From: Tetradesmus obliquus
Lineage: Eukaryota > Chlorophyta > Chlorophyceae > Sphaeropleales > Scenedesmaceae
Reading direction: 5' to 3'
Length of the DNA stretch: 64,000 nt
NCBI GenBank assembly: GCA_030272155.1
Contig: CP126197.1
Location: forward strand, 4,828,001-4,892,000
Shown: positions 2,635 to 54,351 of the stretch, one piece after another
How positions within the stretch are numbered: the stretch's first letter is position 1
Layout: every line of letters starts with the position of its first letter
Program-made: the position numbers and the translations under genes
Notes under the pieces: generated by a model
What the model was told of the DNA's origin: nothing
The model's database searches: none
The model's input: only the letters and a program-made list of their open reading frames with translations

Positions 2635-5600
2635 CCTCCGTGTCCGCTGCCAGCGGTGTGTCTGCGTGCAAGCTCTGCCTGCACAGGCAGCCGAGTGTGT
2701 GCCTGCACCTGCTGCCAGCTAGAGCCTGCTGCACTTGGCACTGTGATGAGCGGTAGGGGGTCGATGTGCAGCTGCTGGAAGGCTGCAGGCGGCGCCACGT
2801 GCTCCCACCACACTCCTTTGGTGGGGCCCTGGCTGTTGTGGGCCAGGTAGTAGCGCAGCCACCTGCAGGCAGCATCCCACAAGGCTGTAGGTTAGGCATG
2901 CGGATGATGCACTGGTGCGAATTTGCGTGAGCTGCGTACAGGCAGTTAGGCGCTCCACAGCTGTGCATACCGGTTCCAGATATATGTTCTGCATATGTAT
3001 GCAGCAGGTGATCAAGGATTGGTGCCCTGCAGCCGAATTTGGCATGGCCACAGGGGTGGCAGCCGCAGCGTGAAGTCCATGAGGCAGGCTGGCTGGGCCA
3101 CCTGGTGTGCGGCATGCCTCATGCATGCTGCTGCAGCTAGCTCTAGTCCACTACTGGGCCAGCCGCAACAAACATTGCCGACCTCTGCGGCAGTGGCCCT
3201 GTGAGCAGCTCTGCTGGCCAGGGCTGCTCGCCCAGCTGCATCTTGTTCATGGTGCGGTGGAAGAAGGCGGGCCGCTGCAGGCAGGCGGCACAGTCGGAGC
3301 AGGATGCACATCATTTAGCGCACTTAATGACGTGATTGACAGTCAGATTGGTTTGAAAGGCAGGGCAGGGTGGGCCTCTTGCAAGCCAGCAAAGCAAAGC
3401 ATGCAGCATGATGTTGCGGCTGACCAAGGGGTGAAGGCATCTTGCCCTAATGAGATTGTGAATCACAGCTTGCTGAGCGCTGCCTGGCTTTCACAAGCTG
3501 CCCGCCGCAAACATCCACAGCAGCTGTGACTGTTGCAGCTGCGCATCCTTGGTCTTAATCATCAACCCATCCAATCTAGCTGCTGCGATTGATGCAGCAA
3601 GCAATGCAGTCTGCATGCCGTACAGGGCTTGCAAGCACACGCTGTAGCCAGAGGGGCCAATATCAGCTGCAGGGTCAGCTGCAGGTCAAGTGTGCTGTCA
3701 TATCACGTAGCTGTCGTGCTGCAGCGCCCCAGTCAGCATAGCCACCATGCTGTCATACCGCACCGCACAGCTGCCCTGCTGTCACATCTCACCGCATAGT
3801 TGTCATGCTGCAGGGCTCCCATCAGCTGCCAGCCGTCCGTTGTGTTGCAGCTGCCGCCTGCACACTTGACCTCCAGCTGCCCTGAGCCCCACCTGAACAC
3901 GCCACCAGGCGGCACAGAAACCTGCACACAGCAACGCCAGCAGTTGGCAGCAGCAGCAGGATCGAACATTGCTATGATCTGGAAGGGCTCACTGCGGAGG
4001 TATGCTGCACCTCTCTGCTGCTTTACAGGATTAGTTGGCGCCAGCATGAACAGCTGCGCTGCAGTGCTGTTACAGAGTGAGACTATAATTGAGCTCACCT
4101 GCATGTACTGGTCAGCAGCCCCCGCCAGTGCAAAGCCCAGGGCGAACGTGTCCTTGTCGCCATGCAGGTGCCTGTAGTAGAGCCTGTCGTGCCAGGTGTT
4201 GACCCACAGCACCCAGTGCAGCACAGACAGCCAGCGCGCCCTGCAGCACAATAACCAGCAGGCAGCACATCTTCACCATAGAAATGCACCAAGGACTGTT
4301 CAGCACAGCCATCTTGCCTACGCACTGCAATGGTACCGTTTAGATGTGAGGGACATAGCTGAAGCGCAGGTGGCCCACCCGGATAGCTGCACAGGTGCGG
4401 CTGCATTGTGTCAGCACAGCCACCAAAGCAGCGCGGTCGCCCACCTGTCCAGCAGCAGCATGCCTGACTCAGCGTCCCGCCCTGACCAGCCAGCGCCAGC
4501 AGACAGCAGCGGCTGCGGCATGGCAGCAGCACAGCAGCAACCACACACCACCATTCAACACAGCCTGGCGTTTTGAGTCCGCTTGAACCTTGCAGCAGAA
4601 CAATCCATGCAGGATGTGGTTGAAAGCGTAAGGTTCTTGAATCGCATGGCTGCTGTGCACAATGCAAAGAATTCCAAGTTCATCTTGTGCCTTGGCCTGG
4701 GGTGAGCTCTGCACCCATACGTAGGCTCAGCTCACCTGCACTGCCGTCCTGTTGAGCCCAAGAATAGGCCACGCCCCAGCACCAACCCAGTCACTCCAGA
4801 AGTCCGGCCAGAACAGGTTGCCAGCTGACTTATAGAGCGGGTCTTCAAAATGCGCCCCAGGGTTTGTGAGGGGCAGGTTGTCGCTGTCCAGCAGCAGCAC
4901 CTCAGCAAAGCTGCAGTGCAGCAGCGCAGCCACCTTGCCCACCCAGCGCTGCAGCGGCACCCTGCACATCAAGCAGTGCACTTACAATTATCATTTACAC
5001 AACAATGACACAATCATACAGTTGTCGACACAGTTAGAGTTGCTCTGATATTAACAGTCAAGGTGAGTCACAAACAAACCAGTACGCACTGTCACAGCCC
5101 TGTTGGCAGCTGTGCAGACACTTATTGCTGCCGGCACTGCCAACCCACTGCCCGTGCTCATCTCCGCGAGGCGCCAGGGTACTGCTCTTGCTGTCCGCAC
5201 CTGCGCAGGTGCTTGGGGTAGGGCGCAGTAGTCACGTCAAACCCGGAGAGCGGCCCAAACTGCTGCTGCAGCGCTGCCAAAGTCGAGTTGTCCATCTCTG
5301 CCCTGCCCTGCCAGGCCACTTCCACTGGCAGGCTGCAGTGCAGCACCTGGCGCAGCACCTGCCCGCATGTGCAACAGCATACGCAGCAGCAAAAGGTCAT
5401 TTTAACTGTTTCGCTTATGAGTATGAAGCTGCCAGCAGCAGTGTGGGGCCTCAGCTGCCTGTGTTGCCGTGACCCATATCGATCTGTTGTAAGGGTTGGC
5501 AGCTTCTTGTGCATGCAGTACTCAAGGTGAATGTGGCAGTGCTGATGCAGCGCCTGGCAAGGATCCAACAGCAACTCGTGGCCCTTCCTGTATTGCTTGC

Positions 5601-6197
5601 AGCAGCAGCATGATATCAAAGCGCTGGCGTGCAGATGCGCTGCACATGCTGCTGCAGGCGCAGCTGCCGCACCTTGAGCAGCACCACCAGGTGGGTGGTC
5701 AGCTTCCTGCCGCCTGCCACAACCAAGATGCCCCTGCTGCTGCGCTGCTGCTGCTGCTGCTGCTGCAGCCGTGCTTGTTCAGCAGCAACCTCGGGGCTGG
5801 CGAGGAACTGCTGCAGCGCTGCCCTGCTGGCTGCTACATCTTGCTGGCTGGGCTGCACCATGTGATGGCCTGACGCAGCAAGTGAGCTGCCAGCCTGAAC
5901 GTTGCTGCTGCTGCTGCTGCTGCTGCTGGGTGTGCGGTGACTGGCAGTGTTAGCTGTCGGCTGATAAGCTGGGTGCAGGTGCGGTCGCTGCCATAAGCGC
6001 TCCGCTGCAGCAAACTGTGGCTCTGGCCCGTTGCAGCTGCTGGTCGATATGCTTGCAGCTGGACCAAAATGAGCGTAGCTGGGCAGGTGAAACTGCAGCC
6101 GGGTGGTGCTTGCAGTTGCTGATGGCGACAGCAGGGCATGGTGCCTCCATACTGCCAATGCAACAAGTGCAGAGGTAGCAGCTGCCAACACCTGCAT
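2199..6197 (-). CDS. MNN1/MNN2-type alpha-mannosyltransferase, Golgi type II membrane protein
   Basis: Eight exons, minus strand: 6197-5673, 5358-5201, 4961-4736, 4467-4445, 4240-4099, 3921-3793, 3274-3183, 2862-2199. They sum to 1959 nt, a 652-residue protein with no internal stop. A short hydrophobic N-terminus (MQVLAAATSALVALAVW) suits a Golgi signal anchor; a Ser/Gln-rich stem follows. The catalytic part shows RGILVVAGG (about 155-163), LPVEV, the donor-binding LLLDSDN (about 250-256), LFWPDFW (about 275-281), GDKDTF (338-343), a PPG turn and FFHRTMNK (about 405-412). This order matches the fungal/plant Mannosyltransf family PF11051. It probably adds mannose from GDP-mannose to glycans in the Golgi; the linkage cannot be told. 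Exon 4 is a 23-nt microexon, required to join NRTAVQ to SGMLLLDR in frame. The last exon holds a Ser run from CAG/AGC repeats and may be a poorly conserved tail. Confidence 0.85.
3702..3737 (-). repeat. Degenerate copy of the 3' end of mannosyltransferase exon 6, with donor-like end
   Basis: On the gene strand this segment (GCGCTGCAGCACGACAGC then TACGTGATATG) resembles the end of exon 6 (GCCCTGCAGCATGACAAC then TATGCG and the donor GTGAGATG) about 85-90 nt upstream. It lies downstream of the exon it resembles, as other 3'-end copies in this window do. Similarity was judged by eye. Confidence 0.5.
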
Positions 6198-7289
6198 TGT
6201 GCCATAGGTTATTTCACTACAAATTCACAAGCATCAGACGGCGCAGCATGTAAAATGGTGGAAACCAATGCGCATCATGTGGTATATCACTTGCAGGCAG
6301 CAGGCACTGGCTTGCTTCAAGCACCGTGCTGTTCTGTCTGGTGCAAGTGCTGTTCTGTCTGCAGCCCCCAGGAAAGTCTGCATAATCTCACCACACTTCT
6401 GCCAGGAAGTCTCGTTGTATACTTCTGTAGCTTGTCTACTCTGGATTTCTTTGATGTTTCAAGCATGCGTGCAGACAACGCGCTGGGCAGTAATCGGGCG
6501 CTTGCTACCTGCTGGGCAGGTGCTGTAGCAGACGGTGAAGTAGCAATGCGATGTGCATGACAAACGTTGTAAAGCAAGTAATCTTTCCAGGGGTATAATT
6601 CCGTTGCTGCATTGCTGTGAGCAAACACGGTGGGAGAGCATCACAGCAGTGCACTTCCGCCCAGGGCAGTTGCGATTACGTTACGTTGGACTTCACTAGC
6701 CTCTCGACGGCTTACATATCCTGCGAAAATAGTGTAAAATTACACTACAGAGTTTTTGCAATATTTTTCAAGCTTTGCCGGTGTCACTCTCTGCCATGCA
6801 GCCTAAGCTGGGCTTGACCTTCTCTCGCAGCGCGGACGAAGAACGTGATTAAGTCGAGCGGTGGTTTAAGACCTCAGTCCACCATCAATATACTTATACT
6901 TGCTTGTGCGTCGTGATCAGCCCTTTTGAACAATCACGGTATTTTAAGGTCACCTTCGCAACACCTTGCAGCGTTCCGTTCTTTCGTGGTGTTTCTTCGT
7001 GCGTGGCCCTGAAAGCGGCGTATATGGTCTTTGGTTGCTAACTAGAAGCTTTTACATCTGTCTCAATATACATCAGCTGAAGCATTCGCGATTCACAAAA
7101 GGGAGCCTAGCCAAGCAACGGCAATCAGCCAACTAAGAGACAATGAAATAGTGTGTTAGGGCGTATTTGCGTTGATTTTGCGCTTCAAAAGATCGCGCAC
7201 GCTAGACTGCAGGAATCACTCATACAGCCAGGCAGCAGCTGCACAAACTACACGGCAGAACACTTGGCCGCGCACCGGACAAGCAGCTG
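6198..7289. promoter_or_regulatory. Divergent intergenic region between mannosyltransferase and SnRK2-like kinase genes
   Basis: About 1.1 kb separates two divergently transcribed genes, so it should hold both promoters and 5' UTRs. The section from about 6700 to 7200 is visibly more AT-rich than the flanking genes, as expected for promoter DNA in a GC-rich alga. A TATA-like GTATATGG lies near 7018. No operator or known cis element could be assigned, and I saw no open frame that looks like a gene. Confidence 0.4.
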
Positions 7290-9939
7290 ATGAACACGAC
7301 CAGCAGTACTAGCAGCCTGGGCTTTGCCAACCTGCAGTATGTGCAGGAGCTGGGCAAGGGCTCCTTCGGCAGCGTCGTGCTTGCCATAGATGCAGACTCC
7401 AACCAGCTGGTAGCAGTGAAGAAGCTGCCACGTGCCTCTGTACAAAGCCGCTACACAGAATCAGAGCTGATCAACCACAGGTTGGTAACAAAATAATGGC
7501 ATTCATTCAAGGCACCAGCCAAGCAGGCAGCAGCTTGGTGAAACAGCATGCGCTGCAGTGCTCAATGCAGCGGGACTGAGTCCTGCGTGGCACTGCAGCT
7601 GGTGCAGTTTGGTGTTGCAGCACAGGTGAACAGCTGGTACAGGCATCCCAGGGCAAATGCTTGGCTAAGCGACACCTTGATGGGCAGCAGCAGCAGCCAC
7701 TGAATTGCAGCTACCAAAGCATGTAGTGCCTGAAACTGTAGTGCGTCTCCTTGGGACTGTCTTGCTTGTGACCAAACCCACATGCCTGCTGCTGTTGCTG
7801 CTCTGCTGCTACTCTCCATCCGTGATACAGCCTGCTTAGGCACCCGCACATCGTCAGGTTTCACAAAGTGAGTGCGTCAAGTGAAGCGCATCCTGCTTAT
7901 GCCGTCGTATTTGTGCATATTTGTGCATATATCCACAGCCAGATTGAGAAGTCTGTTTCCTTGCGCTCCAATGCATGCAAAGAGCTTTGCACGGCACACC
8001 CTGCAAAAATATGAAGCGTGGCAAAAGTGTACAGGATAAAATACAATAAATACTGCTTGACAACATATGATTACTTGTAGATTGACATGTGCTGCTGCTG
8101 GTGCTGCAGGCCTTCCTGTCCCCCAGCCACCTCAACATCGTGATGGAGTATGTGCCAGACGGCAGCCTGCTGACACACATCCAAAACAACAGGTGCGCAG
8201 CACTAGCTCTATGCCAGTTAGCCTGGCAGTGCTTGCTCTGCCGACAAGCTGCATGCTGTGTAAGCCAACTGCAGAGCAAATGTCCACCATGCCACCAGCC
8301 ACTGCACAAGTTGGTGAACTGTTTCAGGTACAACAATACATGCAACACATACGCATGCACAGTATAAGTAGCCTGTCGTTGACAGTGAGATTGTTGTGTT
8401 GTGCTGGCTGGCCCTGCAGGGTGCTGTCTGAGGACAAGGCCCGCTGGCTCTTCCAGCAACTTATCTTTGCAGTCGACTACTGCCACAGGAAAGGTGCGCT
8501 TCTCGTTTGGATGCCTACATCATCAAATAGTGTCCATTCAATGATGGCTGGCTTCAGACCAGCTGCCGATAGTCTTGCAGCCACTGCTGTGTGACATCAC
8601 CATGTGGTGACCACCAACCATTTGCTACAGCCACGGTCAAAACACTTTGATGAGTAACACATCGCCTACATGAAGTTCAGTGCCCCAAGCCTCCTGTGAG
8701 CCGCATCTGAACACCTCATATCGCTGCTCAACGCTGCTGCCGCTTATTGTACTGCCAGGTGTGGCCAACCGTGACATCAAGCTCAACAACATCCTGCAGC
8801 AGCCACATATCACCCCAAGCCTCACTGTAGTGCCTGCTGCTGCCTCTTGTACTGCTTGTACTGCCAGGTGTGGCCAACAGGGACATCAAGCTCGACAACA
8901 TCCTGCTGGACAGCAGCAGCCACGGCAAGCGCGACTGGCCCATCCTGAAGATATGCGACTGGGGCTACGCCAAGCATGATGCCAAGTCCATCGCCAAGAG
9001 CAGAGTGGTGAGGCGAGGACGGCTCTTATCCACAAAGGGTGCAACTGAGATGTGTGTGCTGGGCTTCTCTGCCACCCATGCAAGTGCTTGGGAGCTGTAC
9101 TCTGCTGCGTACATATGGGACTGGTGCAAACATGTATGTGTTACGCGGCCCAGCTCAGCATGTTGCGCCGCTGTCCCCTGCGCATTACCCTCTGCAGTGC
9201 ACCGTGGCCTACATGGCTCCCGAGGTGCTGCGCAGTCACCTGCAACCGCTGCAGCCGTAGGTGTGATCTGCACAGTGCATTCCGCCAATTCACTGATTTG
9301 CAATGCTGCTGCTGCTGCTGCATGTCTATTGCCGCGCAGGGCACCGTGGCTTACATGGCGCCCGAGGTGCTGCAGAGCAAGACCTACGACGGCAAAACTG
9401 CCGACCTGTGGAGCTGCGGCGTGGTGCTGTATGCGATGCTGGTTGGAGGCATGCCCTTCAAAAACATCGACGGCGCCAACCTCGGCAAGAGCCTGTTGAA
9501 GCTGCTCGGCGACATGCGCGGCCAGCGCTTCGCATTCCCGAGCAGCCTCAGCGCGCCAGCACGGGATCTGGTCACAAGGCTGCTTTGCCCGGAGCCGCAA
9601 AAGCGCATCACGATTGCCGAGGTGATGCGGCACGCGTGGTTTGCGCCTGGGCTGCCGCCGAGTGCGCTGACGATGAATGAAGCATACCTAAAGCTGCAGC
9701 GCATGTGCCCACAGAGCGAAGACGAGATCCAGGCGATTGTGAAGCGAGCAGCGATGGGGCCTGAAGCACGGGATGCGAGCGTGGGCAGCTGCAGCAGCAA
9801 CGCGACGACGTACGCTGCCGTTGCCGTTGCTGCTGCTGCTGCTGCTGCTGCGAAAGGGTACACGGGGCCGAGCGCGAGGGTGGATGCACGCAGCTTGGCA
9901 CGGCAGTCGCCGGAGCTGCTGCAGGTGCTGTCCCGATGA
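7290..9939 (+). CDS. SnRK2-like serine/threonine protein kinase with DWG instead of DFG
   Basis: Six exons: 7290-7480, 7840-7867, 8110-8192, 8420-8493, 8868-9007, 9340-9939. They total 1116 nt, 371 residues. The start is the ATG just before MNTTSSTSSLGF; the kinase domain begins about 15 residues later. Visible elements: glycine loop GKGSFG (22-27), Lys44 in VAVKK, catalytic RDIKLDN (130-136), DWG (156-158), MAPEVL (178-183) and a C-terminal QSEDEIQAIVKRA matching the acidic/helical box behind SnRK2 kinase domains. The family acts in osmotic and nutrient stress signalling in plants and algae. The metal-binding motif is DWG, not DFG; Asp is kept, so activity is possible but regulation may differ. 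The Ala run near the end comes from GCT repeats. It is paralogous to the kinase at 24914-27927. Confidence 0.85.
8752..8797 (+). repeat. Partial copy of kinase exon 5 (5' end with 3' splice site)
   Basis: CTGCCAG followed by about 39 nt almost identical to the start of exon 5 at 8868. It differs at the codons for Arg (CGT versus AGG) and Asp (AAC versus GAC, giving RDIKLNN). It ends before the rest of the exon and lacks a matching donor, so it is a decoy acceptor plus a truncated exon inside intron 4. The upstream intron sequence (around TTGTACTGCCAG) is also shared between copy and original. Confidence 0.85.
9191..9234 (+). repeat. Partial copy of kinase exon 6 (5' end with 3' splice site)
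   Basis: TCTGCAG followed by about 37 nt matching the start of exon 6 at 9340; it encodes TVAYMAPEVL like the original. The match ends after the codons for EVLR. It lies in intron 5, upstream of the full exon. Confidence 0.8.
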
Positions 9940-14555: not shown

Positions 14556-14591
<36 letters not shown>

Positions 14592-17500
14592 CGCAGCGGT
14601 GGGCAGCGGCAGCTGGTGGCAGTGCTGGTGTATGAAGCGGGGTTTGCTTGGCCATGGCCTGGCGCTGCACCGGGCACGTGCACGTTGCGTCATTACATGA
14701 AATCAAAGTTGGCTTGAACCATGCGTGCCTGCTGGCCAGCTGCCACACCTGCCTGCACCCTGCAGACAACGAGCAGCACTTCATCAAGTACGTGCTGGCC
14801 TTCTTTGCCGGCACACATTCGAACTTAAAATGCAACTGACCTGTTGCTGCTGCTGCTGCTGCCGCCACTGCTGCTGCTGCTGCAGACAACGAGCAGCACT
14901 TCATCAAGTACGTGCTGGCCTTCTTTGCCGGCAGCGACGGCATCGTGCTGGAGAACCTGGCCGTGCGCTTCATGCAGGGTGAGGCACAACAGCAACAGCA
15001 GCAGCAGCGGAAGTTTATAACAGCAGTAGGAGCAGCAGCAGCAGCAGCAGCAGCAGCAACCAAGGCACAGTGCTGGAGAGCCTGGCCGTGCGCTTCATGC
15101 AGGGTAAGGGGCTAGCAGCAGAAAAGTTACAGCAGCAGCAGCAGCAGCAGCAGCAGCCAGCAGGGAGAGGAAGGGATGTCGGCGGCACGCACGCACAACA
15201 GCACAGGCACGGGATAGACCGCAGGTGCACATATCGGTGCACACAATGTGTTCTTGTTTGTTGAGACGCCATGTTATTCTTGCGTCCCTCCATGCAGACA
15301 TCCAGGTGCCCGAGTTGCGGGCCTTCTACGGCCTCTGGATCTTTCTCTGCTACTTTCCCCCACATCCTCTTTCTCTCTGTGTGCGTCTCACTCTTGTCCC
15401 CCCTCTCTTCACTTCTGCAGACATCCAGGTGCCTGAGGTGCCGGCCTTCTACGGCCTCCAGATCTCCCGTGCTCTCTCCCCATCATCATTTTCCTCTGCG
15501 CACCTCTCACCCTCTTCCTCCCTCGCTGCAATTCCTTGCTGCCCCTGCTGCCGCAGACATCCAGGTCCCTGAGGTGCGGGCCTTCTACAGCTTCCAGATC
15601 TTTCTCCCCTCATCCTCCCTCCCTCTCTCCTCCCTCACTCAACTCTCTGTGCCTCTCACTCCTGTTTCTCCTCTGTCTCACTCTCCCCACGCAGACATCC
15701 AGGTGCCTGAGGTGCGCGCCTTCTACGGCTTCCAGATCGCCATGGAGAACATCCACAGCGAGATGTACGGCCTGCTGCTGGAGACGTACGTGGCCGACCA
15801 GGCGGAGCGGCGGCTGCTGCTGGACGCGATCAACTGCGTGCCCATCATCGGCAAGAAGGCCGCGTGGGCTATCAAGTGAGCCGGCGCTGCTGCTGCTGCC
15901 GCTGCCGCTGCCATGAATATATATATCGAGTTCGGTTGCAGCTTGTAGTCGGCTGTTGGTGGCTGGTGGCCGTGCCAGATAGGGTTTGTGATGTTTTGTT
16001 TTTTTTCGATGACCCTACCACGCACACTCCTGCTTGTGCGCCGCACTCTTGAAATCCCCGCCACCCACCCTCGCCTGCTCTTCCACGCACTCCCGCAGGT
16101 GGATCGGCAGCAGCAGCAGCTTCGCGCAGCGCCTGCTGGCCTTTGCCTGCGTGGAGGGCATCCACTTCTCCGGCAGCTTCTGCGCCATCTTCTGGCTCAA
16201 GAAGCGCGGCCTCATGCCGGGCCTCACCTTCTCCAACGAGCTCATCAGCAGGGATGAGGGCCTGCACACGGACTTTGCGGTGCTGCTGTATGGGCAGCTG
16301 GCTGTGAAGCTGGGGGAGGGCGAGGTGCATGCGCTGGTGGGCGAGGCGGTGGAGCTGGAGCAGGAGTTCATCTGCGAGGCGCTGCGGGTGAGCAGTGGTG
16401 CAGTCTGAATGTGGCATTTTATGGCATGTTTATGGTATCGTACTTGTGTTTAAGCAGGTTGTTTGTTTTGCTGGTCAGATTGGTGTTGTGCAGTGTACTG
16501 CGCGTGCCGATGGGTTTGGTGTGCTGTATGGGCAGCTGGCTGTGAAGCTGGGCTGAGGTGCATGCGCTGGTGGGCGAGGCGGTGGAGCTGGAGCAGGAGT
16601 TCATCTGTGAAGCGCTGCGGGTGAGTGCAGAGCCTAGTTGTACTGTACGTGCGCAGCAGGTTGTATCGCAAACACCAGTTTTCTCAGCAAGTGAGACACA
16701 CGCGGTGCTGTGTAGGTTGTGCTGTGGGCTGCGCATGGTGTGGAATGACCAAGACAGTTGCCTTCCACGCAGGTTGCCGCTCTGATTCCATCTGCCATGC
16801 CTGCTGTTCCCCTTGTCCCAGGTGGAGGTGGAAGGCCTGAAGGCGGGGCTGATGGCGGAGTACATCCCCTGGCTGTTGCAAGCTGTTGCCTCACTTTGTT
16901 CTTACCCTTGCTTTATCTGTTGCAGGGGGAGCTGGTGGACACGGTTGCTGGGCTGATGGCGGAGTACATCTGCCAGCTGTTGCAAGCTGTTGCTTCACCT
17001 TTTTGTTATCCTTGCTCACTCTGTCGCAGGTGGAGGTGGTGGGCATGAATGCTGGGCTGATGGCGGAGTACATCCGCTACGTGGCTGACCGGCTGCTGGT
17101 GGCGCTGGGCTACGCCAAGCTGTACAACGCAGCCAACCCCTTCGACTGGATGGAGATGATCAGCCTGCAGGTGCGGCGGGGTGTTATATTAATCAACACA
17201 GACATGCTAAGGCTTTGTTGGTAATCATTATTAATGCAATGCAACAGCGTTGTCTCCCATATGACTGGACGGTAATGATCAGCCTTTGGCTGGGTGTGCA
17301 GTGTGCGGTTAGAAATCAGCTGTAGCTCGTGGGGATTGCGGTGGTGGCGGTGATGCAGCGGACAATGTATGTCCTGAACCAGGTGTGCTCAATGCGAGTT
17401 TCACCAGGCACAGCAATGAGGCGTATGCCCAGCTAATGCTGCAGCGGTCCACAGATAATGCACTGCACAGCCCTTCAGATTATGCCCAGCTCATGCTGCA

Positions 17501-20786: not shown

Positions 20787-20831
<45 letters not shown>

Positions 20832-24913: not shown

Positions 24914-26197
24914 CTAGAACTGGTCCATGCCCTGCGCCGCATACATGTCGTTCGTGTTGTAGTTCGTGGCCATGGCCACGATGTTCTTGATCTCCGCCTC
25001 GCTCTGCGGGCACGGCCGCGTGTTGGCGAGGTACTTGTCGTTCATGTTGAGCGCATCGGGCGGCAGATCTGTGCGGAACCATGCATCTGCCATGATGCCT
25101 GCCATCTTGACTCGCTTCTCGCTCTCAGGGTGCAGCAGCGCCTTGAGCAGGGCTTTGCACTCGGGCGTGAGGTTGAGGGAGTCGGGCAGGTGGTACTCCT
25201 GCGCCTTCATCTTCTTCAGCATCTCCATCACCTCCTGGCCCAGCCCAGCGCCCTCGCCGGCTGCGGTTGGGGTTTGGGTTTAGGGGTTTACGGAGCAAGC
25301 GGTGGAAACATGGTGGGGTTCAGGGGTTTGTCAAGATATGTAGGGGTGCAAGCAGAGCTGAAGGCTGGGTGGAATGTGAGCAGCAAGGGGTATCAGCGGC
25401 TTGTGCATCAAGAATTGTGCACTACTGCAGCGTGACGATGCTGAGTGACAGCACTATGATGTGTTGTTGCACGGCACGACAGCATGACCTGAGCATGGCA
25501 TGACCATCAACATCCACTGCACGGCGCCACAGCAGCTGCCACGACACCACAGCCACAGCAGCAGCCTCACCGGTTGACTGACCGAAAAGGGTAGCACCCC
25601 ACCGGCATGATGGGCAAGTCGGAAGCATGCACAGCAGGCACACCTGACATGCAACAATGCCACAGGCTCATCTATTGCTACACCACAGCGCAGCAACAGC
25701 AGCAGCCTCACCGTTTGACTGGAAGGGGTAGCGGCCCACCAGCATGGTGTACAGCACCACGCCGCAGCTCCAGATGTCTGCCGTCTTGCCGTCATACACC
25801 CGGCTCTGCAGCACCTCGGGAGCCATGTACGTCAGCGTGCCCTGCAGCAGCAGCAGCAGCAGCAGCAGCACATGTTTGCACCCCGCTATCAGTATCTGTC
25901 AAACCATCCACGGCATATGTCTGCTGCACCTGGGCCAGCCAGCAAGCTGCTGCATGAGCACAGCTCAGCTGCGCACTGCAGTTGCTGCTCCTGCTGCACC
26001 ACCAAACATCGCAAGCCCTGGTCAACCAACAATATTGAAATAGCTCCACCCTGCCGCAGCTGCTGTGTCGCCGCCGCGGCTGCTACCGCCGGTTCCTGCT
26101 CACCACTTTGCTGCGCGCCACGGATCTGTTGTCGTGCTTGCTGTAGCCAAAGTCGCAGATCTTGACCAGCGGCCGCGGCAGGCCCGGGATGACCTGC

Positions 26198-26244
<47 letters not shown>

Positions 26245-31494: not shown

Positions 31495-31532
<38 letters not shown>

Positions 31533-32018: not shown

Positions 32019-32059
<41 letters not shown>

Positions 32060-33372
32060 GGGTTTGGATTTGTCCAGAAGTGGCAGGATGAAGGACTCCA
32101 GGCAGCAATGTTGAGCCTGAAGTGATGCAAGACAGCTAGGTGAGTGCTGCGACTGGTGACACCAGCAACTGACAGACAAGCAAGATAACTGCTGTTATGC
32201 AGGCGGGTGATACATTGGCAGTGCCGCACTTGTATGCTGCTGCCGATGGCCACCCCGAGGCTGAGGTGCGAGTGTCGCCAGCGCAACACAATACAGCAGG
32301 AAACAACACATTACAATCCACTCTTGGAATTCCAGACATCTGGAAACTGACGCACCTGGATGCTGCTACCGATGGCCACGCCCAGGGAAAGGTCCATCTT
32401 GTCTTTGGCCGCCACAAACACGGCCGTGATGTGCTCGCACGCATTGCCCGCAATGGGCAGCACGATGAACCCCAGGAAGCTGCGGGAGAGGCCCCAGGTG
32501 CTGCTGACCTGCGGCAGCAATGGCAATATAATTTGCAGCAGATAAGGATGTTGGGTGGAAGGTGCAGCAGCAGCAGCAGCAGCAGCACGATGGAGCAGAA
32601 AATCGCGGCTGAGGCCCCAGGTGCTATTGACCTGGCGTGACATAACACCACATAGAATCGACATGGACAGCAGCGGGTGCAGAGGTGAGGTGGAAGGAGC
32701 AGCAGCAAGGACGCTGAAGCATGCCGCGGCAGCTGCGGCTGAGGGTTAGGTGCTGCCGACCTCACCCAGAAACACGACAACCATTTTGATGCCCGTCAAC
32801 CACGCCCGCAGCAAGCCATAACTCCAAACCTCTGTACACTAGCTGAACGAACACACCATGCGTCACATAACATGTCACATAACAGGCCATGTCAGCCGTC
32901 GCACCTCTTCGATGCTTCCAGTGAGGAACTCGCTCAGGAATGCCACAATCACGGTGATGCCTGCCAGCCACCGCCCGTAGCAAGGAGCGAGTCCGAACAA
33001 AGAGTAACATATGTTGAATAACATATCACCCAAACATAACATGTTGGCCACCGCACCTCCTCGATGCTGCCCGTGAGGAACTCGCTAAGGAACGCGACGA
33101 TCACAGTAATGCCCGCCAGCCACACCCCTGCAGCGGTCAGCGTCATGTTGGCCTGCTGCGCGTCCTCGCCCTCCTCCCCCGCAAACATGTCCTTGTGCGT
33201 GCCCAGCTGGAAGATGAGGTAGCCGATGTACACGGCCAGCAGCGCGACAGCCGTCAGGCGGCTGAGCAGCAGGATCTGCGGGGCGACATGCAGACGCGAA
33301 ACAAAATAGTTGTTTGGCATTGGGTGGCGTAGGCGGCATCAGGCACGGCGGGGGCGCTCACGGTTCATGGCT

Positions 33373-33410
<38 letters not shown>

Positions 33411-34670
33411 CAGGCATGTGCAAAGATGCATCTTGAGTTTGGCAAGACTGATCAGGGCCTTGTGTGTGCCCAGCTGGAAGATGAGGTAGCCGATGTACAC
33501 CGCCAGCAGCACCACGGCAGCCAGGCGGCTGAGCAGCAAGATCTGCAGGCAAACACAAGGAGCAGTGCACGTTCAGCAGCATGCAGGGAAGCAGTACACA
33601 ATCAGCAGCATGCAGAGCAGCAGCACACAATCAGCAAACTAGCAAGATGCAGGCGCATGTACATATAACTACCACACATGCACGCATGCAATCACGCATG
33701 CAATCGCACACGCAACCAGGCACACGCAGCGCCGCACCCCCACATTGTCATGTGCCATGCCCTGAGCCAGCAGGCCCAGCACTGCTGTGCCCTCCTCATG
33801 CATTTCATGTATTTGCGACGCAAAAAGGCAATCTCTTCGCCAACAGCCGCACCTCCACCTTGTCCTGCGCCATGCCCTGCACAAGCAGTCCCAGCACTGC
33901 CACCCCCTCCTCATGCATTCGATGTACTTCCGACGCAAAAAGGCAATATCTTCGCCAACAGCCGCACCCGCACCTTGTCCTGCGCCATGCCCTGACCCAG
34001 CAGGCCCAGCACTGCTGCCCCCTCTTCGTCAGCGGTGGTGCCCAGGCGCTGCGCGGCCGTGGGGATGATGATGCCGATGGCGCTCAGCAGCAGCAGGCTG
34101 CCGCTGGTCTGGCTGGACACTGCGTTGAAGTGCTGGATCTTGTACCTGCAGCAGCAGCAGCAGCAATGAAAGGAGCAGCCGCAATGTGTTTGGCACTAGA
34201 TGCTTCAGCAGCAGCACATGCCACTGGTCTGGCTGGACACAGCATTGAAGTGATGGATCTTGTACCTGCGGAGCAGCAGCAATGAGAGAAGCAGCCGCGC
34301 TGCGTTTGGCACTCAATGGCATGCATCAGTGCAGCAGCATGCGTGTTGTGTGTTGCATGAAGAGTCTGGTGCGCACCAGTTGTACGCGCTGCACCTATGC
34401 TAGAGTAATGCAGACACCTGATTCCAGCTAGTAACATACTACTGCCAATAGTCTTGCAGTGCAAGATTGCTGCTCTTGGCCCGCTCGCAGGTGCAGCAGC
34501 ACGGCAAGCAGTACAGCTACCACAGCCTACACTTCATGCCCGCAACCATGCCCCGGCCAGCCACAGCAACAGCAGCTGCAGCTGCAGCACCAGCTTACTT
34601 GAGGCTGCATTTGCACTCATGACATTACTCCTGGCAGCACACAACAGCACAGCATGCCAGCAGTAGCAGT

Positions 34671-34716
<46 letters not shown>

Positions 34717-37332: not shown

Positions 37333-37368
<36 letters not shown>

Positions 37369-39342
37369 TTTACCAACCTGTCCGTCAGGCCTGCCTGCTG
37401 CAGCGTTGCGCTGTGTGCACCTGGCGTGAACACCTGCTGCAGGCTGCCTGGCCCCGGGCTGATGGCTGCCTCCCAGGTGGTGTAGTGTGTGAGGAAGCCG
37501 CCGCTGGCTGTGTCGTAATGTAACATAACGCTCCAGCGAAGCCCACCATCAGGGCCAGGCATCTGCGGCAAATGAAGCACAGGGTTTGGACTGGATTGGC
37601 TAGTGTTTGTTACAGCAGCGGTGTCGTAGTGCAGCATCACGCTCCAGCGCAGCCCGCCGTCAGGCCCAGGCACCTGTGGTAAATGAAAGGATGGCTTGGA
37701 CTGGGTTGGTTAGTGTCTGTCACAGCAGCGGTGTTGTAGTGCAGCATCACACTCCAGCGCAGCTCGCTGCCAGCTGACAGTGTCAGGCCCAGGCACCTGC
37801 GTATAGGAATCACATGGTGTTGTTTCGCCAATTCAGCAGCAGTAGAGGTGGTTGATTGCATGCTTGAGCAAGTAGGAAAGCATTGGAACACTGACCATGC
37901 ACTTTGCGGTCGTGCGCTGCGCGCCTGCACATGGTGCATAGGGGGAAAAAGTTTTGCACCCAATTTGGGCGTGGGTGATGCGCAGTGTGAGGTGCATGTG
38001 CAGGACTCTGCAAGCTCCCAACTGCCGTGGGTTGCTTGTGCATGATACTGTCATGTTTATTTATGCACTAGGCATGTAACACAGCTGCCGCTGCCGCGCA
38101 CCCGCATATACATCCTGTTGAACCACGTCTTGTGGGCCTCCCCCAGCTGCTCAGTGGGCCCCACCAGCGGCAGGCCGCCAGTGACAACCAGGTTGCCATG
38201 CCCCGGCACCGCCAGTACCCGCATGGCTGCCGCCAGGCCTGCAGCAGGCGGGGCGGGGCCGGACAGCTGTGCTGCTGCAGCAGCCAGGCTGGGCTGCAGA
38301 GAGAATGCAGTAGTGTAGTGTTTACACGCAAGGGAGGTTCAGCAGCAGCAGCAGCAGCAGCAGCAGCACGTGTGGCAATGAGAGACATCCAGGGGTTCAC
38401 ACACAGTACGCACAGTGTCCATTTATCGCACAGGGATGTTGAGCGCTGCGATAGGGCCAACAAGCGTACAACGATCAGCATGTGAGCATTGCATGGATGA
38501 ACCACCCATGCTGTACTACAGGCAGCACTCTGTTCAGCACTGCTGATGACGCTGCTGCAGCCTGGGGCTGCAAATATCTTCCCCACCATCTGCAGCCCAG
38601 CTACCCATCATGGTCATTATTACTCATCGCCCTTACCTCCATAAGCGGCGTGCCTGCAGCTATCTCTACAATGAGTGTGTCCATGTCTAGCTGCAGCTGC
38701 AGTGGGTCCTTCTGCAGCTGCGGCAGCTGCTGCCGCTGCTTCTGCAGCTTTGGCGAGCTCAGGTCTCCCTCCTCCGCCTTCCACACCTGACACACCTCCG
38801 GCTGGCCGTCCTTGCGCCTGCAGCAGCACAGCACGCAGCAGCAACATCAAGAGCGCGTGGTACTTTACAACATTCGAAAGGAGACTGATGCAGCTTGGCG
38901 TGCGATGCCGAGAGGTGGACATTCCCTGCAAAAGAGGTAGCAAAGTGTGCTATCTAGATTCAAGGTGCAATGCAAGCATACTACCAGCACACCAGCACAC
39001 CAGTCATCCAGTGATGAGGTCTCAATCGGCCAAAAGGGTTCACCTGAAGCCATAGATGATGTCTCCTTCTGCCAGCAGCTTCGACTCGCTGCCTTGGAAC
39101 TTCTGCCACCTGCCAACATAACCACTGATAGGGCGCTCTGCGATGCTGCCCATGTTGCTGCAAAGGTTCGCATAGTTCTGCTCCGATGTGAATTTCGTTT
39201 TGTTACGAGGCGTTGCCTCAGTTGCAGCTCCTGCTGGCTCAGAGGTTGCCATGGGCCTCAGGTGGTGCTGCTTACTGCTGCGCATTCGTGTGCTGCTGCT
39301 GCCAAGCAAGCAGCGCCTTGGTTGCACGGCACGTGACAGCAT
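36685..39342 (-). CDS. Uncharacterised, probably plastid-targeted protein
   Basis: Five exons, minus strand: 39342-39044, 38817-38637, 38293-38102, 37562-37378, 37108-36685. They total 1281 nt, 426 residues; all phases agree. The first 45 or so residues are rich in Arg, Ser and Ala with almost no acids (MLSRAVQPRRCLLGSSSTRM), typical of an organelle transit peptide. The mature part has segments NLCSNMGSIAERPISGYVG, GRWQKFQG, VPGHGNLVVTGGLPLVGP, AHKTWFNRMYMR, LRWSVMLHYDTASGGFLTHY and KLSGSFTQLTYDD. The pattern of short beta-strands with Trp/Tyr (SGSFTQLTYDD, YGFRRKDG) recalls lipocalin-like DUF3598/CpcS-type folds, but this is only a structural guess. I do not recognise the family. The last exon carries a Gly/Ser-rich insert. 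It shares a 407-bp divergent region with the gene at 39750. Confidence 0.7.
37560..37798 (-). repeat. Three-unit array of exon 4 5' end with 3' splice site
   Basis: Units begin on the gene strand near 37798, 37680 and 37562, each after an AG. They share CCTGGCCCTGA-, GCGCTGGAGCGT- and CTGCACTACGACACC-like blocks, period about 115-118 bp. Only the unit at 37562 runs on as exon 4 (MPGPDGGLRWSVMLHYDTA). The first copy has an insertion that shifts its frame. The linking sequence (GTAACAAACACTAGCCAATC) is repeated as well. Confidence 0.9.
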
Positions 39343-41094: not shown

Positions 41095-41141
<47 letters not shown>

Positions 41142-45100: not shown

Positions 45101-45624
45101 GACACAGCACCGGGCAAGTGCCACCAAAAGGAAACTGCAGCCTGCAGCCCAAAAGATGTGTACAGCCATGAGCAACTGTGAACACACCAGCCAAGCACTG
45201 CTCTTCTCAGCCGCATCATGCAGACAGTGCACTGCCGTGAACACAGGAAGGGGACATCACACGGCAGCTGCAGATATGTCCAGTAGGGTGCAACCCTGAA
45301 CCCATCCCTGCATCACGAGTTCTAGCACCATGTAAGAGCATGAGCGCAATGTTATGACTGCCACAATCAGAACTGCACCACTCAAGATGCAACACCACCC
45401 TGAGAAAGCACAGCTTACAGCACGCACCGCAGCCCGACGGCTACCAGTCCGTGCAACCCGACCCCAATAACACTTGCTCACTGATAACAGTTAGCAAGCC
45501 AGCGACGGCGCAAGCAAGCCTGCCTGCATAGCTGCATTGAAATGCACAACACACGGTGACAGCGGAGATGACCCAATCAGCCCTCGACGCAACATTGGTT
45601 CTGCTTTCAGCCCTGCCACACCAA
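42162..45624. other. Gene-poor region 3' of the secreted protein and of the receptor kinase
   Basis: About 3.5 kb between convergent genes. A possible last exon of the secreted protein lies at about 42530-42772 (LQYVPVTSEGP-like frame). Otherwise no gene is supported. Small direct repeats occur at 43170-43225 (GGTAACTGGTAACTGGTAA and GCCCAAGGTT twice), and a cluster of perfect palindromes at 43947-43986. Confidence 0.4.
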
Positions 45625-48600: not shown

Positions 48601-50761
48601 GACAGCCAGGCAGGCGGCAGAAACCTCGTGTTTGCACAGCGAGCGCATGTTGGCAATGTCCTGCAATGCAGCAGCACAGGCGTAGCTTCAAACACAGCAG
48701 GGCACCAGCAGGGCGCAGCAACAGCATGGGTACTCGGCAGCGCAAACCCAGGGAAATCAGATAAAGCACCGCGTGTGGAATGCAAACCACAGTTTTCTGC
48801 TGCATGGGATATGCTCGTGTCGCAAACACTTACCAGTGCATACCCGCCTTCAAGGTGGTGGCTGCCTTCTTCCTTCGTGAAGGGTACGTCCACTGCAGAG
48901 GGCGAATAACAGCAGCACACACATGTATGGAGCCACGTGTCAGCATACAGCGGCATCAGCTGGGAGGATAGCAGCAACAGTGGTTAGGGCCGCATGCATA
49001 ATACACCAGTACACGCGATATAGCATGGTACACAAGCTACATGCTGCATGTGTGGCGCATGCTATGCCAACTGAGGAAAGAAACGCTACTGGGTACCTGT
49101 GTAGTTCCTGTTCATCAGAGTGGCTGGCCAGACCCGACCCTGCATGCAGCAATCACACAGTGTGTGGGGTCACCCTGCATCCCTTCAATGCTCAGGACAT
49201 TCAGGCGCAGCAGATACTCCCACTGAGCCATGCACACGCAGCAGGTGCAGAGTCACCTGGCGCCGCAGGCACAACATCATGTACGAGCACACTGATAGAA
49301 ACGACGGGGGTATGTTCTGCTGCTCGTACATCCAGCTGGGCCTTTCGCGCATGTATGCGTGCTGTATACTGTTTGCCGGCCCTCCTGCCGCTAGCCACCT
49401 GCAGCTGTCACGCTGCAGCACCGCTTGCAGGATGCGCACACACACATGCCACCTGTGCTGAACACATCATCATGGACTCATCACAGCATGCACACTTGCT
49501 TGAGCTGCACGGGAACACATTCCTGCAAGAGCAGCTACCTACATTCCACGTGACATCGCCCTTGCCGGTGATCTGCGGTGCGTTTGGCCCCGGCAGTATC
49601 TTGCTGCGCGGCGTCTGCACCACAACCACCATGTTTGATGCGGCCGATGTGCACGCCAGCCGCAGCCGCTGCGCACTCTGCACCCGCACGATGCTGGTGC
49701 CTGATGGCTGACCAACCAGTAGGTCCACCAAGCCACCTGGGCCTGCAAGTGCAGATGCGAACATGCAGAGAGCACGCAGACAGGTGGAGCTTGCAGGAAA
49801 GGTCAGCAGGCCGGCTACAACACAGCGTGCCTGCGGAGTTCAGGGTGGCACACGGCAAGTCATGCCAGAGCACTGGGCAGCAATGTCTGCAGCAGAGTGT
49901 GAGGCCAGGCGTGCTGTTGAAACAGGAAGAAGGCAGCACTTGCAGGACGCCATTGCAGGTGCTGCAAACACACAAGCAGGAACGGCCCTGGAGCTGCATG
50001 TTGTGAGAGTGAACACACAGCCACGTACACACCTCTGCGTTCATTGGTCATCGTGATGTTTGTGATATTGAACACGCATGTTGCGCACAGCTGCACCACC
50101 CCATGCAGGAAGGCCAGGTCCAGCACAGTGTCCAGGCCCTGGGCGCCCGTCAGCGTGACGTTCCTGCAACAAGGGGCAGCAGCACGACCTGCGTTGTAAA
50201 ACCTTGCTGCCGCTGCTGCTGAGAGCCAGCGAAAACCACGCCTATGGTGTATTCAGTTTGAAGGAGCTAGCCCCTTCAGGCAGAGTTCAGTGGGATGGGT
50301 AACTGATCAGCTGGCAAGGCATGTGAACCAAGCGCTATGGAGCACTTCATGCAATGCGTAATCAGCTGCTGGTTGTCTGCAGTTGAAGGCCGTGCTTCGG
50401 TAATAATGCAGGTGCTACTTCATGCGAGTTTGGTCGATGAAGTTCAAGCCTTGAAGGTGGTGGTCCTGCTGCTGCTTGTCTGGCAAAGCAGATGTCAAGC
50501 CAAGCCCTGACCCCACCTTGTCAGCTGAATGGGCTCCCCCGCTTTATCATCGAACTCCCCCGCCACTGTATGGTTCCCAGGCACGACGATGATGCTGCTT
50601 GTGCCATTGGCCAGCTCCCGGGCAAGTGAAAAACTACTGGTGCTGCTGCCCCACACCTCTGAATTGGCAGATTTGCACGCGGATAGGAGCAGAATGATAG
50701 TACCAACGCGATGAATAAGAACGCTCACAACGCGTCGTTTTCCCCTCCCTCTGATAGTCAT
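45625..50761 (-). CDS. Receptor-like protein kinase (TKL type), intact copy of a tandem pair
   Basis: Twelve exons, minus strand: 50761-50517, 50163-50033, 49742-49543, 49139-49097, 48892-48834, 48660-48483, 48237-47932, 47631-47084, 46819-46676, 46297-46246, 46030-45879, 45717-45625. They total 2151 nt, 716 residues. The chosen Met (MTIRGRGKRR) gives a signal peptide with core VGTIILLLSA. The ectodomain contains NVTLTGAQGL, CATCVFNITNITMTN and QTPRSK segments, resembling beta-helix-like ectodomains of green-algal receptor kinases, plus a small Cys motif (SLCKHEVSAACLA). One membrane span (VLLVAAGIGFLLW, from residue 286) leads to the kinase: GAGSFG (392-397), Lys412 in VAVK, HGDL (567-570) in place of HRDL, ARN, DFG (593-595), PPE and a terminal ERPSADQLVEAVGAL helix. 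The catalytic loop Arg is absent but Asp is kept. Phases match the paralog at 51915-57908. Confidence 0.85.
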
Positions 50762-51914: not shown

Positions 51915-52924
51915 TCAGCCTGTGCAGCCACCACGTGCTGCTATCAGGGCATCAATTGCATCCAGCAGCTGATCTGCTGTTGGCCTGTCGCCTGGCTTAG
52001 CAGCCCAGCACTACAACAGTCACAAGCAACAGCAGCAGCAGCAGCAGCAGCATTTCAAGCTTGACCTCAGACAGGCACGACAGCTACAGCATCTGCAGCT
52101 GCAGCTCGCCATGCTGCAACATGACACATGGCAGAACCTCTACTGCATCACTGCCGCTGTGCCAAGTCCAGCTGCAGCCCGCCAGCTGCGTGCAAGGTGC
52201 TAGTTCAACTTAGCTGACACACCCTAGCTAGACATACTAGCGCACCAATTTAAACTCCGGTTGAAGCTGAAACAGTAACCTGACAGCAAAAGGACAGGGA
52301 AAGCAGGTCTGTGTGTGTGTGGCAGGGCACATGTTTGAGTCAGACACAGCTGTGGGTGTCTAAATTCGTTTTTATACATCTGTTCCCAGCCTCAGCTGCA
52401 GCCGCCGCACCTGCCGCATCAGCGCTGCGGAGTCCTGCAGCATGCCAGCCGGCATTGCTGGCCGCAACCCTTGCAGGACAATCGCCTGGTAGAAGCTGCC
52501 ATAGTGCAATTCCTTGAACGCGGTTTTTCCAGTGGCAGCCTCCCACATCATCACGCCAAATGCTGCATGCAGGGATATGAACATTGTGGCAGCAGCCCAG
52601 GCAGGGCAGCACTCAGCGCCATCAGTACAAGCTCAATTTCAGGCACTGGCCGCGCATGCTGTGCTGCCGAGTTCTTGCGTGGTAATCCTGACCCCTGACC
52701 TAAACCCTACACCCCGTTATCTAACAAGGTTCGCTTGCTCCTGGCCAATCGTTGGCTAGCGGCGCTGCAGCTCTTGCATGCACTCGCCTTTGCTCAGCAG
52801 CTGCAAATCCTGCATGCAAATGCTCTGTTTCTCTGTGCCCACAGATGCTGCAACTCCTCCTTGCTCACCGTACACGTCCATGGCGGGGCTCATGCGGCCC
52901 TCCTTGAGCACCTCCGGCGGCTGC

Positions 52925-52957
<33 letters not shown>

Positions 52958-54256
52958 GATGTTGCGGCAGCAGCGGCAGCAAGGCCGTGGCAGCAGCAGC
53001 AGCGGCAGCAAGGCCGTGGCAACACAGCAAAGCACAGCGCTGTGCCTTTGCAGTGTCGCTTGCCACGTGCCGGACAAAGGCAAGTACAGGAAGCATGAGC
53101 CGATACACAACCACCACATGAGGGTGTTTAGCAGCCAAGCTGCATCGCTTATGTGCTTGTGTGCTTGTGTGCTGCTGTGCACTGCAGTGGCATGATGGTG
53201 ACAGTACCCGCCATATGGCTGAGCGTGCCGCAGCAGCATCATGATTGGCAACTCTCTGGCAGCAACAGTGTGCTGGATTCTTGCAGCCCAATGCCTGACC
53301 CACCATGTGGCTCATGGTGCCCCAGGTCTTGGTGGTCCTGTGCGTCTGGTGCTGCTTCATAGCGCGGCTCAGCCCAAAGTCCGCCAGCTTGGCGGTCAGG
53401 CCGGCAGCGGCGGCTGCGTTGGAGCGCACCAGCACGTTGCGCGCATTCTGCGGCAGCAGCGGAGGGTCGAGGCATGATGTGAGCTTGGCCTGCAACTGGA
53501 TAGCTGGTGTAGCTCGCATTGTCTATATCCTTGCGCAGTCAAATTAGATGCAACGGCATGCGCCTGGCACACACAAGCTGAATAAATTGATGGAAGGCCA
53601 ATCGCCTTTTGTACTTCTGGTATGAAGGACCGAAAGGCTGCACAGTGTGACTCACCAAGTCACCGTGCACAATGTTTCGGCTGTGTATAGCCTGCAGACC
53701 GCGCGCCACATCCCGCAGCAGCAGCAGCACCTGCACAGGCATGTCAGGATCTGCTTGCTGCTGCTGCCGCCGCTGCCGCCGCTTTGTCAGCAAAGTGTCC
53801 AGTGTGTGTGTCAGCGTGCCACAGTCACACAACTCCATCACCAAGTGTGACTCTGCTTTGCGCTGTTTGGAGGCTGCGTCTCTGCCGTTGGTCTTTTCGC
53901 CGCTGCCGCGCTTACTGCCGTTGCTCAGCTGCCGTGTCGTAGACACGGTGTTGCTGCCGTTGCTGCTCGGCTGAGCTGCTGCCGCGGCAGCCGGCGATGC
54001 GGTTGCTGCATCACTTGCTGCACTTGCTGCAAACCTGGCGTAGTGGTACGCCGCCACGATGCACTCGTGCTGCAGGCCCATCATGAGCAGCACCTCGTTC
54101 TCCACCTCCACAGCCCTGGACGCGTCGTGCTCGATGACCTTGACCGCCACCTCCATGCCGTTCCAGCGGCCCCGGTACACGCGCCCAAAGCTGCCCGCAC
54201 CCAGCAGCTCGCCTGTGAGCGGGGTCAAAGCAATGCATGGTTCAGCACAGCACACC

Positions 54257-54257
<1 letters not shown>

Positions 54258-54326
<69 letters not shown>
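54258..54326 (-). repeat. (CTG)23 run (sense) before receptor kinase exon 8
   Basis: Twenty-three CAG triplets on the plus strand, CTG on the gene strand, between the true acceptor at 54212 and an upstream duplicate acceptor at about 54340 (TCACAG plus GCGAGCTGCT). It is the longest pure triplet run in the window. Confidence 0.9.
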
Positions 54327-54327
<1 letters not shown>

Positions 54328-54329
54328 GG

Positions 54330-54351
54330 CCAAAGAGCAGCTCGCCTGTGA
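54330..54351 (-). repeat. Short copy of the receptor kinase exon 8 start with 3' splice site
   Basis: On the gene strand CTCACAGGCGAGCTGCT occurs here and again at the true exon 8 start (CTCACAGGCGAGCTGCT, 54218 downward), with the (CTG)23 run between them. Confidence 0.7.

What the first reader, a model, noticed from the sequence alone, without database searches (positions are those of the whole stretch)
3702..54351. Introns in at least six genes carry partial copies of adjacent exons together with their splice sites, with strict polarity
Seen directly: copies of an exon's 5' end always lie upstream of that exon and bring a 3' splice site; copies of an exon's 3' end always lie downstream and bring a donor. 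Examples occur in the mannosyltransferase, both SnRK2 kinases, RNR2, CAX and the unknown plastid gene, with a short one in a receptor kinase. Tandem duplication of a segment spanning an exon-intron junction would give exactly this layout. The density (about 20 copies in 64 kb) and range from exact to worn copies suggest a continuing process that lengthens introns and builds competing splice sites. I know of no named element type that does this.
Basis: partly seen in the sequence, partly recalled or inferred. Interest (0 to 1): 0.9.

Follow-up and report, generated by a model that had tools for sequence, protein, structure and literature searches.

The report
Exon-edge tandem copies crowding algal introns
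In this green-alga-like genome, short stretches covering the boundary between an exon and its intron have been duplicated side by side many times, which appears to lengthen introns and leaves look-alike splice sites that the cell must ignore; each event is of a known sort, but finding so many of them is unusual.

Summary
I find 23 partial exon copies at 17 of 88 internal exon edges, in six genes. The polarity is not a separate law: a tandem duplication across one splice junction leaves the used copy joined to the exon body, so a spare 5' edge must lie upstream and a spare 3' edge downstream. The same pattern occurs elsewhere in the genome. In 16 measured units the intron part is at least 50 nt; once that is required, breakpoints fit random placement (threshold read off the data). 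Best explanation: a general tandem-duplication process, filtered by the need to keep one working splice site. The kind of event is known (potato RdRp, PMC4974935). Open points: larger duplications sit on exon edges in 13 of 15 clusters against 42% expected in gene bodies, P 0.02 if such copies stay visible twice as long; in 9 of 20 copies tested no duplicated intron flank is recognisable; four arrays, picked after the fact, differ from the real exon almost only synonymously. Three spacers tested showed no mobile-element family.

The parts
3693..3737 (-). Copy of the 3' edge of mannosyltransferase exon 3793-3921
   Evidence: score 43 vs maximum 37 in 500 shuffles; copied donor weak (-1.8)
8747..8797 (+). 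Copy of the 5' edge of SnRK2-1 exon 8868-9008, 109 bp upstream (with 12 nt of intron)
   Evidence: intron flank also recognisable (P 0.017)
9198..9231 (+). Copy of the 5' edge of SnRK2-1 exon 9340-9939, 142 bp upstream
   Evidence: flank not recognisable
14766..14813 (+). Copy of the 5' edge of RNR2 exon 14886-14978 (nt 1-48, identical)
   Evidence: 48/48; flank not above other-intron pairs
15064..15103 (+). Copy of the 3' edge of the same RNR2 exon (nt 54-93)
   Evidence: 37/40; flank similarity is CAG-rich and ambiguous (above null, P 0.16)
15298..15600 (+). Three copies of the 5' edge of RNR2 exon 15695-15875, starting 15298, 15421, 15557
   Evidence: 38/44, 43/47, 41/44
16518..16620 (+). 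Copy of the 3' edge of RNR2 exon 16099-16387, with gtgagt donor
   Evidence: 99/109; flank not recognisable
16822..16973 (+). Two copies of the 5' edge of RNR2 exon 17030-17170 (16822, 16928), 104-bp unit
   Evidence: intron part 45 of 55 identical between two units
17256..17285 (+). Worn copy of the 3' edge of RNR2 exon 17030-17170
   Evidence: 24/30, score 36 vs null maximum 33 (weak)
25579..25612 (-). Copy of the 3' edge of SnRK2-2 exon 25712-25841
   Evidence: 27/34; intron flank recognisable
34220..34265 (-). Copy of the 5' edge of CAX exon 33974-34145
   Evidence: intron part 45 of 55 aligned columns identical, 10 gap columns
33744..33912 (-). Two copies of the 3' edge of CAX exon 33974-34145, 115-bp unit
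   Evidence: intron part 54/61
33453..33542 (-). Copy of the 5' edge of CAX exon 33057-33275
   Evidence: 80/90; flank not recognisable
32905..32981 (-). Copy of the 3' edge of CAX exon 33057-33275; codon differences 10 synonymous, 0 nonsynonymous
32758..32812 (-). Older copy of the same CAX 3' edge
   Evidence: 40/57
32588..32631 (-). Copy of the 5' edge of CAX exon 32356-32508
   Evidence: 34/46, score 41 vs null maximum 34
32231..32267 (-). Copy of the 3' edge of CAX exon 32356-32508; 7 synonymous, 1 nonsynonymous
37617..37796 (-). Two copies of the 5' edge of unknown-gene exon 37378-37562, about 110-bp unit; inner copy 9 synonymous, 0 nonsynonymous over the 18 codons counted
   Evidence: outer end 37796 read by eye. 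The exon start is a hand choice (the HMM began this exon at 37465): open frame and a consensus acceptor, no homologue

Best explanation
The introns hold the products of frequent short tandem duplications (mostly 85-270 bp) that happened to span one exon-intron junction. After such an event the copy still continuous with the exon body stays in use; the other is stranded in the intron with a spare splice site and decays as non-coding DNA. Some stranded edges are then re-amplified into arrays. Selection keeps only duplications that leave the used junction with enough of its own intron (at least about 50 nt in this sample), which would also explain why few junction units are shorter than about 85 bp. 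The initiating lesion is inferred, not shown; repair of nearby nicks or staggered breaks by fill-in synthesis is the most likely class.
For: All 23 copies lie on the predicted side. In arrays such as CAX 33731-34027 and L023:3464-4107, intron and exon parts are duplicated together. In 11 chosen unit pairs with a recognisable intron part, exon-part divergence is 0.54 of intron-part, against 0.65 expected if the stranded copy is neutral (P 0.09). Leaving out four outlier arrays (6 of 30 copies), codon differences are 45 synonymous to 43 nonsynonymous, as expected (46% synonymous). Unit length is under 85 bp in 2 of 44 edge clusters but 13 of 24 others (P 5.5e-6), and the intron part is 50 nt or more in 16 of 16 measured units (one per edge, 16 of 17 edges, weak 17256 left out; 50 in the mannosyltransferase, next 54); breakpoints are uniform once 50 nt is required (KS 0.64 against 5e-6 without; threshold chosen after seeing the data). 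Unit lengths fall in all three residues modulo 3 (8, 3, 5). The same unit sizes occur in 7 of 17 usable random 10-kb loci. Three spacers have no dispersed relatives other than matches of a CTG-rich part.
Against: In 9 of 20 copies tested the duplicated intron flank cannot be recognised although the exon part is about as well conserved as in the others; RNR2 14766 is 48/48 identical in exon yet its flank does not match. Larger duplications in the window sit on exon edges in 13 of 15 clusters (14 if 37583 is counted) against 42% expected in gene bodies; with doubled visibility of exon-bearing copies P is 0.02 (0.004 for 14), with threefold 0.10 (0.03). Four arrays show few nonsynonymous differences and make the total of 89:50 exceed expectation (P 2e-5). 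In two of the 11 pairs both members are stranded copies, where a ratio of 1 would be expected, and L022 shows 3/102 exon against 22/77 intron differences, so some slower decay of exon-derived sequence is not excluded. No RNA, no second assembly and no related species was available.
Confidence: 0.74

Rival explanations
1. Duplication is directed to exon edges, by transcription- or splicing-coupled breaks or by a template switch that copies the exon edge without the intron flank, rather than by random tandem duplication plus selection.
For: 13 of 15 larger clusters in the window contain an exon edge against 6.3 expected in gene bodies (0 of 3000 placements); within-locus placement 42 of 55 vs 18.9; nine copies whose similarity stops at or near the splice consensus.
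Against: A two- to threefold longer visibility of exon-bearing copies removes much of the excess. Tandem duplications of the same size occur without recognisable coding in L020:5078-5709, L024:4602-4850 and L026:9532-9705. Introns lose alignability quickly in places: of two paralogous exons 139/144 identical, the 5' flanks do not align, though their 3' flanks do over 50 nt. In the sample loci the HMM sometimes called copies exons, which inflates the enrichment.
Confidence: 0.13
2. Some copies were born diverged, through unequal exchange between long-separated haplotypes whose introns no longer align, so that copy and exon come from different alleles.
For: Four arrays differ nearly only at synonymous sites (single-array P 0.0003, 0.0005, 0.024 and 0.055). 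In L006 all three copies share four codons that the real exon lacks, and two share a fifth.
Against: Needs very high synonymous divergence within the species. A search of the held assembly found no near-identical second copy of the CAX exon stretch tested and only distant CAX paralogues, but an assembly that keeps one haplotype would not show it. Most arrays fit simple decay.
Confidence: 0.06
3. The copies are functional, as alternative exons or splicing decoys kept by selection.
For: Many copies keep consensus-like splice sites; synonymous excess overall. That decoy exons can regulate intron retention in mammals is recalled; one search showed only a listing of papers holding these words.
Against: Unit lengths are not restricted modulo 3; several copies carry frameshifting indels, or stops before the real junction if read on; exon-part conservation in recognisable units does not exceed the neutral expectation significantly (P 0.09).
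Confidence: 0.04
4. Assembly artefact, such as haplotype sequences laid in series.
For: No reads or second assembly could be checked.
Against: Copies carry private substitutions and indels, form graded arrays, and recur in several loci.
Confidence: 0.03

Closest known systems
Internal gene duplication (Gao and Lynch 2009, PNAS; not held in the library; known here through PMC4974935 and recall)
   Same: Segments inside genes duplicated, with intronic and exonic parts
   Different: There a survey over genomes (recalled); here 12 of 22 exon edges of two genes of one window are affected, with arrays
Potato RdRp tandem duplication across the intron 1/exon 2 boundary (PMC4974935, abstract and passages seen)
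   Same: The duplicated segment crosses the intron-exon boundary and brings a 3' splice site with its signals
   Different: There a cryptic donor turned the copy into a new intron; here the copies are inferred to stay inside a lengthened intron
Small tandem duplications from fill-in at staggered breaks (PMC8355091, passages; Schiml 2016 and Vaughn and Bennetzen 2014 only as titles in its reference list)
   Same: Head-to-tail duplications from repair of nearby nicks or breaks, a plausible source mechanism
   Different: Sizes and the enzymes involved were not tested here; the passages read concern other organisms
Introners (PMC9860276, search listing and start of abstract only)
   Same: Bring introns into genes in numbers
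   Different: Introners are elements that insert copies of themselves across the genome; the three spacers tested here have no dispersed relatives and the copies come from the adjacent exon

Membership tests
Tandem (internal gene) duplication spanning an exon-intron junction | Copy near the parent, same orientation, on the side left by an intact reading frame | tested here: met
   23 of 23; inverted matches (6 rows) were between the two SnRK2 genes or distant stretches
Tandem (internal gene) duplication spanning an exon-intron junction | Exon and intron parts of the unit duplicated together | tested here: inconclusive
   20 of 23 copies tested: clear in 9, uncertain in 2 (15064, 33797), not recognisable in 9
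Tandem (internal gene) duplication spanning an exon-intron junction | Stranded copy decays without coding constraint | tested here: inconclusive
   As expected outside four arrays (45 syn: 43 nonsyn), not over all (89:50, expected 64.3 syn, P 2e-5)
Introner or other mobile element | Related copies of the inserted sequence elsewhere in the genome | tested here: not met
   Three spacers tested; matches only in a CTG-rich part of one, none dispersed for the other two; the search skips simple repeats and very common words
Intron gain by tandem duplication (Rogers model) | A new intron made from an AGGT-containing exonic repeat | tested here: not met
   Copies lie in introns of the gene models and begin at or within 4 nt of the parent's own splice site, except the truncated outer copies 37763 and 32812; ancestral intron positions were not compared
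Repair-associated tandem duplication | Origin from paired nicks or staggered breaks | not testable with these tools
   Needs mutation-accumulation or break-induction data
Functional decoy or alternative exon | Use or binding in RNA | not testable with these tools
   No RNA data held

The most novel reading that the evidence does not exclude
Exon edges in this lineage are a preferred target of duplication, and the spare splice sites so created put selection on the real exon edge, which answers by synonymous recoding until it out-competes its copies. In the unknown gene the two copies share six synonymous differences from the real exon, and in L006 the three copies share four; most of the copies' codons there end in G or C while the real exon's end mostly in A or T.
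Probability: 0.1. Interest if true: 0.85.

Novelty: new variant of a known kind. Interest (0 to 1): 0.52.

Why it matters
As far as I recall, intron growth and cryptic splice sites are usually traced to transposons or slippage. Here introns appear to grow by repeated duplication of their own junctions, leaving copies of different ages of the same splice site side by side. That is a natural experiment on how a spliceosome picks one site among near-identical neighbours and on how much intron a junction needs (about 50 nt here). It also warns annotators: my own gene finder called several copies exons.

Tried and rejected
Dispersed element: three spacers searched in the own genome, no family. Source in a paralogue: no near-identical second copy of the CAX stretch tested; the best other CAX-like matches are on C3 (45-82% identity) and C13. 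RNA families: none at gathering score in the window. A fixed mechanistic unit of about 125 bp: considered because offsets peak at 100-150; dropped as the main reading because short units are missing mainly at exon edges. That classification is imperfect: the unknown-gene array at 37583 and, by eye, L022 at 1276 and 4941 were counted as non-edge. General coding constraint on the copies: considered from the synonymous excess; the pooled divergence test is not significant (P 0.09), and the excess sits in four arrays picked after seeing the data. One search gave 65:44 for 21 copies of the window (expected 44.7 synonymous, P 7e-5); one search trimmed the ends of some of those alignments, used only the part of 16518 behind its indels, used measured transition bias, and left out 17256, 32812, 37763 and the mannosyltransferase. 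In one search the polarised count took a copy of the unknown gene as the real exon, so its 39:25 and 9:0 totals are not used. One search scores masked N against N as a match, which inflates the 14766 and 15064 rows. Exon overlap, as against exon edge, is not enriched in gene bodies (12 of 17 vs 10.5, P 0.31; 12 of 15 vs 9.8, P 0.17). One search used an expected edge share of 39%; one search recomputed it for the 15 clusters (42%) and replaces it. The first HMM runs over-called introns or merged genes; one search replaced them for the window.

Literature: I saw listings of eight searches (at most the best 20 of up to 5,893 papers) and passages of three papers. No listed title describes this pattern in a green alga. 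The library is open-access only; Gao and Lynch 2009 is not held.
Full report
Setting. The window is C7:4828001-4892000 of a 104.66-Mb, 17-contig genome. G+C 56% and predicted splice sites of the form GTGAG and CTGCAG fit a chlorophycean alga (recalled). PMC5966456 (passages seen) lists Tetradesmus obliquus at 108 Mb, 57% G+C and mean intron 462 bp; the identification is an inference and was not tested.

Gene models. I trained a small HMM on the window and sample. PDB matches support RNR2 (E 3e-118), CAX (2e-74) and SnRK2-1 (4e-40); Pfam gives mannosyltransferase PF11051, acetoacetate decarboxylase PF06314, and a tyrosine/serine-threonine kinase domain PF07714 for TKL1; the unknown gene matches nothing. 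I curated exon ends by hand knowing the finding, so the curation was not blind.

Observation. Exon edges of ten models were aligned to their own introns. Twenty-two copies passed the shuffle threshold and one more, in the mannosyltransferase, was found unmasked. They touch 17 of 88 edges, nine 5' and eight 3' (edge total). Two are weak (17256, 32631). The copy in the receptor kinase was not found.

Why polarity is automatic. If a unit made of intron end plus exon start is doubled, only the downstream copy is joined to the rest of the exon, so the spare lies upstream; the mirror image holds for exon ends. Duplications wholly inside exons should survive mainly in whole codons; the two seen, 114 bp in L026 and 24 bp in L015, are multiples of three. 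The polarity speaks against dispersed copying but points to no new element.

Elsewhere in the genome. Over 26 loci (261.5 kb, window included, satellites L013 and L021 left out), 57 clusters of local duplication with offset 60 bp or more were found; 36 contain an exon edge against 16.5 expected (maximum 28 in 1000 placements). Placed within their own locus, with offsets of 85 bp or more, 42 of 55 against 18.9, and in the random loci alone 24 of 35 against 13.5. Here the HMM sometimes took copies for exons, which inflates the figures. With curated exons in the window, 13 of 17 clusters contain an edge against 6.7 in gene bodies (P 0.0025). For the 15 clusters with an offset of 85 bp or more it is 13, or 14 if the unknown-gene array at 37583 is counted, against 6.3 (0 of 3000). 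If exon-bearing copies stay visible twice as long, P is 0.02 for 13 and 0.004 for 14; three times as long, 0.10 and 0.03. Plain overlap with exons is not enriched in gene bodies (P 0.31 and 0.17). Seven of 17 usable random loci have units of 85-170 bp. L022 (SNF2 helicase) and L023 (MRS2-like) are packed with them.

Filter. In 16 window units (one per edge, 17256 left out; lengths entered by hand) the exon part is 34-103 nt and the intron part 50-177 nt. Random breakpoints predict many units that are mostly exon; none is clearly so (largest exon share 0.51; KS 5e-6). Requiring 50 nt of intron restores a uniform fit (KS 0.64), a threshold taken from the data. Units under 85 bp are rare at edges (2 of 44) and common elsewhere (13 of 24, P 5.5e-6). 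I infer that a surviving junction must keep its own branch site and flanking intron.

Decay. Where the intron part can be aligned (11 pairs that I chose, two of them between stranded copies and three sharing one array), exon parts have diverged 0.54 as much as intron parts, near the 0.65 expected for a neutral spare copy and a conserved real one (P 0.09). Codon differences over 30 copies (19 of the window's 23, 11 from L006, L022 and L023) are 89 synonymous to 50 nonsynonymous, expected 64.3 synonymous (P 2e-5); one copy per edge gives 63 to 29 over 21 edges, expected 42.4 (P 1e-5). Leaving out CAX 32981 (10:0), CAX 32267 (7:1), the unknown gene (9:0) and L006 (6:1, 6:4, 6:1) gives 45 to 43, as expected; the choice was made after seeing the counts, and L006 alone is not significant. 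In L006 four codons differ between the real exon and all three copies, a fifth between it and two of them.

Flanks. The intron flank of copy and real junction is clearly alike in 9 of 20 copies tested and uncertain in two (15064, 33797); in nine it is not recognisable: 9199, 14766, 15298, 16822, 33542, 32631, 16518, 32267 and the mannosyltransferase. On their edges these are the sole or the outermost copy. Fast intron turnover is one possible reason: in the tandem kinase pair an exon 139/144 identical has an unalignable 5' flank, though its 3' flank still aligns 43/50. RNR2 14766, identical over 48 nt, remains hard to explain that way.

Verdict. A known kind of event, at what looks like unusual density and leaning towards exon edges, with a sign of selection on splicing. 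The flank-less copies, the remaining excess at edges and the four synonymous-only arrays are the open points.

Noticed in passing
45641-50184 and 51934-57284 (- strand): A tandem duplication of about 6.6 kb carries a TKL-type kinase and a second gene; two kinase exons are 94-96.5% identical while another is 75%, which looks like patchy gene conversion.
   Followed up: partly
L026:7844-8397: A 114-bp unit repeated several times inside one open reading frame (38-residue protein repeat).
   Followed up: no
L013 and L021: Long arrays with a unit near 312 bp, satellite-like.
   Followed up: no
window, many places, e.g. 54257-54326 and 41096-41167: CAG/CTG microsatellites are abundant, and some spacers between copies contain CTG runs.
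   Followed up: no
14766-15103: The two copies of RNR2 exon 14886-14978 cover nt 1-48 and 54-93, nearly complementary halves of the exon.
   Followed up: partly
L020:5078-5709: A 141-bp array of several worn units without recognisable coding sequence.
   Followed up: partly
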